Positions 16,209 through 19,276 of a DNA stretch of 64,000 bases are shown in pieces. How positions within the stretch are numbered: the first letter of the stretch is position 1; every line of letters begins with the position of its first letter. The DNA comes from an uncultured Synechococcales cyanobacterium. GTDB taxonomy: Bacteria > Cyanobacteriota > Cyanobacteriia > CAIUCS01. The stretch is from positions 1 to 64,000 of the forward strand of contig CAIUCS010000114.1 of assembly GCA_903897715.1 (NCBI GenBank). Reading direction: 5' to 3'. The notes under the pieces are model-generated. The model did not search any database. It was not told the DNA's origin and saw only the letters and a program-made list of their open reading frames with translations. The position numbers and the translations under genes were made by a program.

Positions 16209-17420
16209 ATGGCACATAACGATCAAAAACCCCGACCTAAGCTAAACCAAAGATCAGCAAAACCCGTTTCTGGTAAAGGTCGTTCAGGTAAGGGCAGGGA
16301 CAATAGAGGCACAGATAGTTATTCCCAGAGGGACTCTAAAGAATATAAAAAGCAAGTCGAAAAGAAGCAAAGGTATGGATCTGATCGCCCTTTGAGGCGT
16401 AATCAGACCAGACATGATAACTATGAACAGGATGAATCCAACCATGAACCTCATTTCCCTTTTGATGGTGGGGAAGAGAGGGATAAATCCCCGTCTATGG
16501 GAAATAAATCGACTCCTAAGCCATTAATCCTTCGTGGTCATGGTAAACCATTCCCACGACTAGTTCAGTCAATATCTCCACACCACAAGGCACAGGAAGC
16601 TGCTAACGACTCTCCGTTAGAGAAAATTGTACCCCCTTCATCCCCTATCGTTCAGGGAGATGGGGACGAGAGGGATTTAATTTATGGACGACATTCTGTT
16701 TTATCAGCCTTAGAAAGCCAACGAAGTTTGAATCGTATCTGGTTAATTGATCGGCTTCGTCATGATCCCCGCTTCCGTACATTACTCATCGCTGCCAAAG
16801 CCAATGGCACAGTGATTGATGAAGTAGACCCCCGTCGTTTAACTCAGATTACCCATGGGGCAACCCACCAAGGTATTGCTGCACAGGTTGCTCCCTACAC
16901 CTATTTAGAATTGGATGAATTGATCCAAAAGGCTTTTACTGCCCATGATAATCCCATCCTTTTGGCATTGGATGGCATCACAGATCCCCACAACCTAGGG
17001 GCAATCATTCGAACGGGTGAGGCGTTGGGAACTCAGGGGTTAATTTTGCCACAACGACGAACTGTGGGAATTACTTCCACTGTTATAAAAGTCGCATCGG
17101 GAGCTTTAGAAAATTTTAATGTGGCTCGAGTGGTCAACCTCAGTCGTAGTTTGGATCAATTAAAGGAGCGGGGGTTCTGGATCTATGGTGCTGCGGCTGA
17201 AAACGGTCAACCCCTTCATGGAGTTAAGGTCAATGCTCCCACTGTATTGGTGATTGGCTCCGAATCCAATGGTTTAAGTTTGTTAACCCAGCGTTATTGT
17301 GACCAATTGATTTCTATCCCCCTGCAAGGGAAAACTCCCAGCCTGAATGCCTCTGTTGCCACGGGGGTAGTATTATATGAAATTTGTCGTCAACGGTGGG
17401 GATCGGTGCATCACCTTTGA
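16209..17420 (+). CDS. rlmB: SpoU-family 23S rRNA 2'-O-methyltransferase (RlmB/TrmH)
   Basis: Methylates the 2'-OH of G2251 of 23S rRNA or a related site. The 403-residue protein has a long, hydrophilic Lys/Arg/Ser/Gly-rich N-terminal extension (about 1-145) that looks disordered. After it come the SpoU substrate-binding domain (from [14 protein letters not shown]) and the knotted SPOUT domain (about 245-400). The three SpoU motifs are visible: [25 protein letters not shown] and [16 protein letters not shown]. It is 46 bp downstream of mrnC, consistent with coupled rRNA processing and modification. Confidence 0.92.
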
Positions 17421-17578
17421 CTTAATGTTGGTTGGCGATGAACTGTCTACCCCTCAGGAGTCTGCTTAGTGCCAGCAGATTGGGAGTCCTCGCCATGAAG
17501 GAGAGAATCAGGGGCATCCCAAACCAAAACCAGTGAAGCGCTCAGATTTACAAGCTCATGCAGGGCGGGAATAAGTGT

Positions 17579-18559
17579 TCAGAAAGATGGAGCCGTCCCT
17601 CCATCTTTCCCCACATACTGGCATCCTTTATGGGACCACATTAAGGATCGAAGTGCCCATACTTCTGCCGACGAGAACTGTTGCCAGGGATCCACCCCAA
17701 AAACTAGCGGTTTTTCTGGCGGATAGGGTTGTTTTGCGGCGATTAATCGGCGACGCTGTTCCGAGGTGAGGTGAAACAGTACGGCGATATGGTCCTAAGG
17801 GACAGGCGTGGGTCACCACCATTCACCATCTAGGCGGGCAAGGGCGGTGAACACCCAAGCATTCCAAGAACGCTGCAGGGCAATCTCCCGGAAGTAGTCT
17901 AGACTCTGGCGATCCCCTGTTGTGACCAGTCGTTGGCAGGAGGCTACCGCTGCCCATTCTAGATCCGAAAAGGCGATAGGAACAGAGGGTTGTACCCCTA
18001 AAAACCACTCCAGTGCAGACCGAAGAATTGCGGTAATTTGATCGGGTTCTAGTTCCCCAGCCACTTTATCCAGCACCGCCCCCGTGCGAACCCGCAATTC
18101 CGGAGACACCATACAGTCCAGAATTGCCGATGCAAAGTCCTCTCGGGAAACCCTAGATTCTTGAATAGCCTGTCACACACCATCGTGATGATCCGTAAAG
18201 TCACGACTGTACCAGACATTTCCGTCTCGAAGCTGAGACCGAACCAGAGAAGAAATGTGGGATGAAGTCTGGGTAGAAGGGCGACGAACCCGCACCGGCA
18301 AATCTCCTGTCCGGATGACCCCAGGATGACCAGGCTTTAATTGGGTGGCACTCCTACAACCCTACCCAAGAGACTCTAGTACATCTACTACTGCCTCCTC
18401 CTGCCCATCATCTGATTCATCTGCCGGAATAAGAATATCGTAGGGAATCCGCAACATTTCGCCACCTACTCTCACATCAACCACCCACTGTTGTCAGTGT
18501 GTTGAACCAGCGCCCGAAAAATGGGATTCTGAATGATATGTCAGTGTCTCTTCCTTCAT
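17579..18559 (-). pseudogene. Decayed 327-codon gene with five in-frame stops, no frameshift
   Basis: From ATG at 18559 to TGA at 17579 the minus strand holds one continuous frame of 981 bases, broken only by stops after GAGSTH (TGA), LESLG (TAG), HHDGV (TGA), GEWW (TGA) and PTPVP (TAG). Between stops the sequence is protein-like: WVVDVRVGGEMLRIPYDIL, GNVWYSRDFTDHH, an alpha-helical stretch of about 100 residues (SAILDCMVSPELRV onward), and LTSEQRRRLIAAKQPYPP. Each stop is one transition from Arg, Gln or Trp. I do not recognise the family. The sequence looks richer in G+C than its neighbours. It is most likely a recently inactivated gene; recoding is a less likely alternative. Confidence 0.65.
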
Positions 18560-18640
18560 ATTCGTCTCAACCATAGTTGGGCAGGATGCAGGGAAAGTTG
18601 TTGATAACCCATAGTTGACATAGTTCAGCCCATAGGAAAA

Positions 18641-18663
18641 CCAGTACTCCTGAGGAGTACTGG
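18641..18663 (-). terminator. Intrinsic terminator after psbM
   Basis: CCAGTACTCC at 18641-18650 and GGAGTACTGG at 18654-18663 form a perfect 10-bp stem with a 3-base loop. On the minus strand the hairpin is followed by TTTT, about 40 bases after the psbM stop. Confidence 0.7.
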
Positions 18664-18702
18664 ATAAAAATAATTAAATGGAAATCTGAAAATTGAAAAA
18701 CT

Positions 18703-18810
18703 CTAGTTTTCCCCTTGGCTTGCGGTTTGAATATACAAAATTAATAGAAAAACTGCAGGAACCAAAACAAATAAAATACTAGCCACAAATCCTAAGTTAT
18801 TGACTTCCAT
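18703..18810 (-). CDS. psbM: Photosystem II reaction-centre protein M
   Basis: A 35-residue single-helix subunit at the PSII dimer interface. It reads [18 protein letters not shown] then [17 protein letters not shown], matching PsbM in length, the MEVN start and the FVLVP helix. It lies on the minus strand downstream of the ferredoxin gene, about 170 bp away, with a clear terminator after it. It was found by reading the gap, since it is very short. Confidence 0.92.
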
Positions 18811-18979
18811 GGGTGTTAGCCTCTACAACACTCGATAACCACAATTGAACTGAATATCAACTAGGGGATAAATTTAGTTTCCTCTATGGAAATTTAGTGG
18901 GAACCCCATAAAATAATACTTTATCATTCACCACTACACTATTGGCATATCAGTGTGAAATTTGTAATCAGTGAATAAT

Positions 18980-19276
18980 TTAAGGCTTGGTCTTTACGTT
19001 GACAGAACCATTCACAAGAGTTTGGCACGCTAATCGATAGCTGTCAGGTTTTCGCTTCAATTTACGAGTCTCAACTTCAGTTCGAGGGGATAGGTTTTCT
19101 AACCCATCTACTATTTCAACGATACAGGTTCCACATTGCCCGTATCCGCCGCAATTCATCATTTTCCCGGTAAAGGTGTAGAGGTCAATGTTATTTTCCA
19201 ATGCTTTCAATCGTAGGTTTGCTCCATCCGCAACGATACATTCTCGGTTTTCTTTGATAAACTTGATTACTGTCAT
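18980..19276 (-). CDS. 2Fe-2S ferredoxin
   Basis: A 98-residue soluble electron carrier. Cluster ligands are in the plant-type pattern: [10 protein letters not shown] supplies three cysteines (near residues 43, 48 and 51), and the fourth is in RLACQTL near 83. The rest of the sequence differs from the main photosynthetic PetF, and the C-terminus is basic (NVKTKP), so it is probably a specialised paralogue. Its reductase and acceptor are unknown. It is divergent from psbB, with psbM downstream on the same strand. Confidence 0.88.

What the first reader, a model, noticed from the sequence alone, without database searches (positions are those of the whole stretch)
17579..18559. 981-bp reading frame broken by five stop codons but no frameshift
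The minus-strand frame from ATG 18559 to TGA 17579 is exactly 327 codons long. It is interrupted by TGA, TAG, TGA, TGA and TAG and by no indel. Translation between the stops is protein-like and each stop is one transition from Arg, Gln or Trp. Decaying genes usually collect indels too, so the frame was lost recently or by a point-mutation process, or the stops are tolerated. The family is not one I recognise. No TAA occurs among the five stops.
Basis: seen in the sequence. Interest (0 to 1): 0.55.

Follow-up and report, generated by a model that had tools for sequence, protein, structure and literature searches.

The report
Dead duplicate of a rare gene
A stretch of cyanobacterial DNA that looked like a gene interrupted only by stop signals is an ordinary dead gene copy, with small insertions or deletions hidden among the stops, and is of modest interest only because it belongs to a rare, unnamed gene family.

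Summary
The frame and its five internal stops are real. It is a gene relic: coding score fits this frame, and intact relatives exist (best tblastn E 4.85e-23).

(1) It is not free of indels. A partial second copy in the same genome (87% over 352 bp) shows a 1-bp and a 5-bp gap 14 bases apart that cancel; the fourth stop lies between them. (2) The 327 codons are not one ancestral gene. Relatives cover about codons 89/104 to 310; the frame then runs through a terminator-like hairpin to a chance stop.

The second copy has its own stops at other codons and none of the window's, and relatives have ordinary residues there. That speaks against tolerated or recoded stops.

Best account: the gene, with the 28-codon tail of a neighbouring DEAD-box helicase gene, was duplicated; both copies then decayed independently. 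The family is rare (5 of 388 class genomes). In 3 of 5 relatives it follows a SUKH-3-like immunity gene, so an immunity-like role is possible but unproven. Ordinary pseudogene; low interest.

The parts
17579..18559 (-). Frame of the finding: composite of upstream DNA without relatives, the decayed gene body and read-out through a terminator-like hairpin
17627..18298 (-). Decayed gene proper (codons 88 to 311; start inferred: GTG codon with AGGAG 8 bases before it; end inferred from the second copy and relative L034)
   Evidence: tblastn with the G495 relative covers 18256-17636, 33% identity, E 4.85e-23; alignments; limits are inference
18494..18496 (-). Stop 1, TGA, codon 22, outside the family region
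18362..18364 (-). Stop 2, TAG, codon 66, outside the family region; may be the native stop of another small relic (inference)
18173..18175 (-). Stop 3, TGA, codon 129; relatives have Ser, Ser, Glu, Ile here
17807..17820 (-). Frameshifted stretch between a 1-bp and a 5-bp gap relative to copy C201; holds stop 4 (TGA, 17815-17813)
17795..17797 (-). Stop 5, TAG, codon 255; His in the second copy and in 3 of 4 relatives
17581..17610 (-). Hairpin read as the last codons of the frame: probable intrinsic terminator shared by the convergent genes; nearly unchanged between the copies (1 difference in 36)
   Evidence: not among the hits of the consensus scan
17490..17574 (+). Duplicated 3' tail (about 28 codons) of a DEAD-box RNA helicase gene whose full copy lies on contig C201
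17431..17492 (.). Piece of a dispersed repeat abutting the duplicated segment

Best explanation
An ordinary pseudogene. A gene of a rare, unnamed, probably alpha-helical family stood convergent to a DEAD-box helicase gene (inferred). It was duplicated together with the helicase's last 28 codons (shared segment shown; direction of copying inferred). The window copy, between rlmB and psbM, gained premature stops, two cancelling indels and read-out past its old end; the C201 copy kept only its 3' part and gained different stops. No product of the frame is expected. The living family may be an orphan immunity-protein type (inference from gene neighbours only).
For: Frame is coding-like and shows homology. 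Second copy at C201, 87% over 352 bp running into the helicase tail. Two cancelling gaps around stop 4. No intact copy among the matches in the own genome, 99.99% complete. Neither of the 2 window stops in the overlap is in C201, and none of C201's 3 is in the window. Ordinary, variable residues in relatives at the stops. The gene part differs between the copies at 15.2% of 223 sites against 5.9% of 85 in the helicase tail, which is constrained in one copy. Simulated neutral change of 8 to 12% per site gives a mean of 3.3 to 4.9 stops in the frame.
Against: Differences between the copies lean to third codon positions (11, 5, 18; p=0.024), so part of the divergence arose under constraint. Only about 86 codons can be compared with a close copy; indels elsewhere are untestable, and a neutral 1:10 indel rate (an assumption of the script) would predict more (7.8 to 11.7 at 8 to 12%). 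Codons 1-87 have no relative although they score as coding (0.153 over codons 1-65).
Confidence: 0.94

Rival explanations
1. The stops are tolerated: read through or recoded, and a full-length protein is made.
For: No TAA among the five; protein-like translation between the stops; differences between the copies lean to third positions.
Against: No stop position shared with the second copy, which also has a TAA; relatives have Ser/Glu/Ile and mostly His at the two testable in-frame stops; stop 4 results from a frameshift; the 39 ORFs of 200 aa or more in the window end in TAA 18, TGA 14, TAG 7, so all three are in use as ends; only a tRNA-Arg was found in the window, no suppressor (window only).
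Confidence: 0.02
2. Chance open run without homologues.
For: No match in Pfam, NCBIfam or PHROGs.
Against: E 5.5e-17, 6.5e-6 and 4.85e-23 to relatives; coding score and low stop count.
Confidence: 0.01
3. A shortened piece of the gene is still expressed, for example the 99-aa ORF 18112-17813 (-).
For: It is open from ATG and lies in a part with a good coding score (0.242 over codons 130-248).
Against: It lacks the family's N-terminal part and its end lies in the frameshifted stretch; no promoter-like site found in 17350-18900 (sigma-70 consensus only).
Confidence: 0.03

Closest known systems
Bacterial pseudogenes (for example the Salmonella set of Kuo and Ochman, PMC2916853; abstract, outline and one results section read)
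   Same: Premature stops and small indels in a once-coding frame; that section reports a premature-stop point mutation in 131 of 346 singly disrupted cases, so stops without indels are not unusual there.
   Different: Several lesions in one gene, where 346 of 378 there had only one; so this relic is probably older than most of those.
Immunity proteins of polymorphic toxin systems, SUKH neighbours and HEAT-repeat type (PMC3482391, passages read)
   Same: In G604, G618 and G495 the family member directly follows a SUKH-3-like gene; the paper lists HEAT repeats among immunity domains, cyanobacteria included.
   Different: No toxin gene recognised nearby; no HEAT model reaches its cut-off (14.0 and 13.8 bits against 27.7 and 23.5); 2 of 5 relatives lack the SUKH-3 neighbour.

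Membership tests
Pseudogene | Homologous to intact genes elsewhere | tested here: met
   Intact frames in G495, G618 (runs off the contig), G044, G053
Pseudogene | Frame disrupted by stops or frameshifts absent from intact relatives | tested here: met
Pseudogene | No product | not testable with these tools
   needs RNA-seq or proteomics
HEAT-repeat proteins | Match to Pfam HEAT models at the curated cut-off | tested here: not met
   L034 protein 14.0 and 13.8 bits, below cut-off; no match for G495 and G618 proteins
HEAT-repeat proteins | Alpha-solenoid fold | tested here: inconclusive
   All-helical model of the L034 protein, pLDDT 64; best Foldseek matches are mostly HEAT/ARM proteins but none at E<=0.001
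Polymorphic-toxin immunity proteins | Next to a toxin gene or in an immunity locus | tested here: inconclusive
   SUKH-3 neighbour over the cut-off in G604 (25.8 against 23), below it in G618 (20.9), by eye only in G495 (split ORF); no such gene seen in the G044 list; G053 lies beside a 1904-aa ORF without a recognised toxin domain
Polymorphic-toxin immunity proteins | Neutralises a cognate toxin | not testable with these tools
   needs an experiment

The most novel reading that the evidence does not exclude
The relic's living relatives are an undescribed family of immunity proteins that travels with SUKH-3 genes in cyanobacteria; the window holds a discarded orphan copy, so the turnover of orphan immunity genes by duplication and decay is seen here in a phototroph.
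Probability: 0.3. Interest if true: 0.3.

Novelty: new member of a known kind. Interest (0 to 1): 0.1.

Why it matters
Mainly as a caution: a frame 'broken by stops but no indel' can hide indels that cancel each other, and a second decayed copy in the same genome shows it at once. The rare family and its SUKH-3 neighbour would deserve a look by those who study immunity proteins.

Tried and rejected
Pfam, NCBIfam and PHROG scans of the frame: nothing. First look among 39 relatives' genomes: only the own genome. Two genome-contig scans: none and one relative, a Sericytochromatia MAG, the same locus as G053. Plasmids and viral contigs: none. N-terminal 103 codons alone in 338 class genomes: 12 with E<=0.05, own copy 3.2e-65, best other 0.008; taken as chance and dropped. 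From, 16 of 386 genomes matched at E<=0.1; only own, G053 and G044 were kept, the other 13 (E 0.009 to 0.088) dropped as chance. PDB profile search: one match at E 0.84, dropped. Rfam: only a tRNA. A ~25-bp deletion further up in the C201 copy was considered; the alignment there was no better than shuffles (score 40 against a shuffle maximum of 41), so not claimed. A SUKH-3 remnant upstream in the window was looked for: none (E 3.3). The dispersed repeat at 17431-17492 was suspected from memory to be an IS200/IS605 end; of the 15 TnpB loci of the genome only one matched, by another part of one repeat copy, so dropped. A frame change near the start (another frame scores better over 18560-18622) rests on 20 codons and is not claimed. 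Paper searches gave background only (listings seen; PMC8935012 abstract and outline).

Full report
What was checked. The minus-strand frame 18559-17579 has 327 codons with five internal stops, TGA 22, TAG 66, TGA 129, TGA 249, TAG 255, and ends in TGA. Five stops compare with 17, 9, 14, 12 and 11 in the other five frames, and with a mean of 12.3 (sd 3.5) in first-order Markov simulations, P(<=5)=0.014. The codon log-odds, trained on 39 ORFs of at least 200 aa in the window, is 0.178 per codon for this frame and at most 0.096 for any other; genuine genes average 0.239 in 100-codon windows and wrong frames -0.012. The frame was therefore coding.

Relatives. Protein search of 386 phylum genomes gave G053 (E 5.5e-17) and G044 (E 6.5e-6) besides the own genome; a three-row profile found 3 of 386, 5 of 388 class genomes, 1 of 10 in the family of G044 and 1 of 18 in the class of G053. 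A five-row profile found 2 of 63 and 1 of 36 in the families of G604 and G495. These counts include the query genomes themselves and the samples overlap. Intact frames: G495 338 aa, G618 at least 295 aa (runs off the contig), G044 250 aa, G053 219 aa; in G604 the gene is split over two frames. G053 is a Candidatus Sericytochromatia MAG. The G495 protein matches window 18256-17636 at 33% identity, E 4.85e-23. No Pfam, NCBIfam or PHROG model matched the frame, and no Pfam model reached its cut-off for the four relatives scanned; NCBIfam gave nothing over its cut-off for the G495 protein.

The second copy and the hidden indels. The own genome holds one further match to the gene, on contig C201. 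The alignable segment is 352 bp at 87% and runs from the 3' part of the gene into the last 85 bases of an intact 487-aa DEAD-box helicase gene that converges on it. Thus the window carries a duplicated segment: gene plus helicase tail (17490-17574). In the alignment the window lacks one base and, 14 bases on, five bases relative to C201. The 14 bases between are out of frame in the window and contain stop 4; in C201 they read in a frame that resembles the relative of G053. Which copy changed is inferred from that resemblance.

The ends of the frame. All four intact relatives begin opposite codons 89 to about 100 of the frame, and codons 1-103 alone have no convincing relative. A GTG at codon 88 preceded by AGGAG is a plausible start (sequence; inference). 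At the other end the G053 protein stops opposite codons 310-311 and C201 has a stop at codon 312 where the window has a sense codon; the G495 and G618 proteins run on past this point with a C-terminal part that the window and G053 lack. The frame then runs through a hairpin with a 12-bp stem, 17610-17581, the 56-nt stretch folding at -22.2 kcal/mol, z -3.94, nearly unchanged between the copies (1 of 36 sites), probably the terminator shared by the two convergent genes. So '327 codons exactly' is not a gene length.

Are the stops tolerated? Neither of the two window stops within the overlap is present in C201, and C201's stops are elsewhere, one of them TAA. Opposite codon 129 the relatives have Ser, Ser, Glu and Ile; opposite 255 they have His in three of four. 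Large ORFs of the window end in TAA 18, TGA 14, TAG 7. Nothing suggests recoding. A mutator that makes only C-to-T changes is also not seen: 16 transitions and 15 transversions in the 188 bases after the indels, of eleven kinds.

Course of decay (inference). The gene part differs at 34 of 223 sites (15.2%), the helicase tail at 5 of 85 (5.9%), as expected if the gene drifts in both copies and the helicase tail in one. The lean of differences to third positions (11, 5, 18, p=0.024; for the part after the indels 10, 5, 16, p=0.053) says that constraint lasted for part of the time. Simulated neutral change of 8 to 12% gives a mean of 3.3 to 4.9 stops.

Possible function of the living family (inference, about 0.3). 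In G604, G618 and G495 the gene directly follows a SUKH-3-like gene: 25.8 bits (cut-off 23) in G604, 20.9 in G618, and by eye in the split ORF of G495. No toxin gene was recognised by eye among the ORFs within about 6 kb in G495 and G604. HEAT repeats are listed as an immunity type in PMC3482391 (passages), and the fold model of the G053 protein is all-helical with HEAT/ARM proteins on top of weak matches, but no HEAT model reaches its cut-off. The role is a lead, not a result.

Verdict.

Noticed in passing
window 17431-17492: Piece of a dispersed repeat with 73-89% copies at five other places of the genome (contigs C17, C79, C108, C54, C179), four of which share about 190 bp; it abuts the duplicated segment. 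Nature unknown; not tied to TnpB genes.
   Followed up: partly
own genome, loci L048-L062: 15 matches to the TnpB zinc-ribbon model, 8 of them with a stop inside the match: the genome seems to hold many transposon relics (some stops may be natural ends).
   Followed up: no
L065 1465-2486: In G604 the same family's gene is split over two overlapping frames, so it is broken there too.
   Followed up: partly
L063 2165-2835: In G495 the SUKH-3-like gene before the family member is split into two ORFs.
   Followed up: no
L034 197-5911: Giant 1904-aa ORF with a nearly duplicated C-terminal unit directly before the family member in a Sericytochromatia MAG; no confident domain.
   Followed up: partly
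window 18980-19276 and 18703-18810 (-), 16209-17420 (+): A 2Fe-2S ferredoxin-type gene and psbM stand upstream on the same strand; a SpoU-type (rlmB-like) methylase gene lies downstream on the other.
   Followed up: yes
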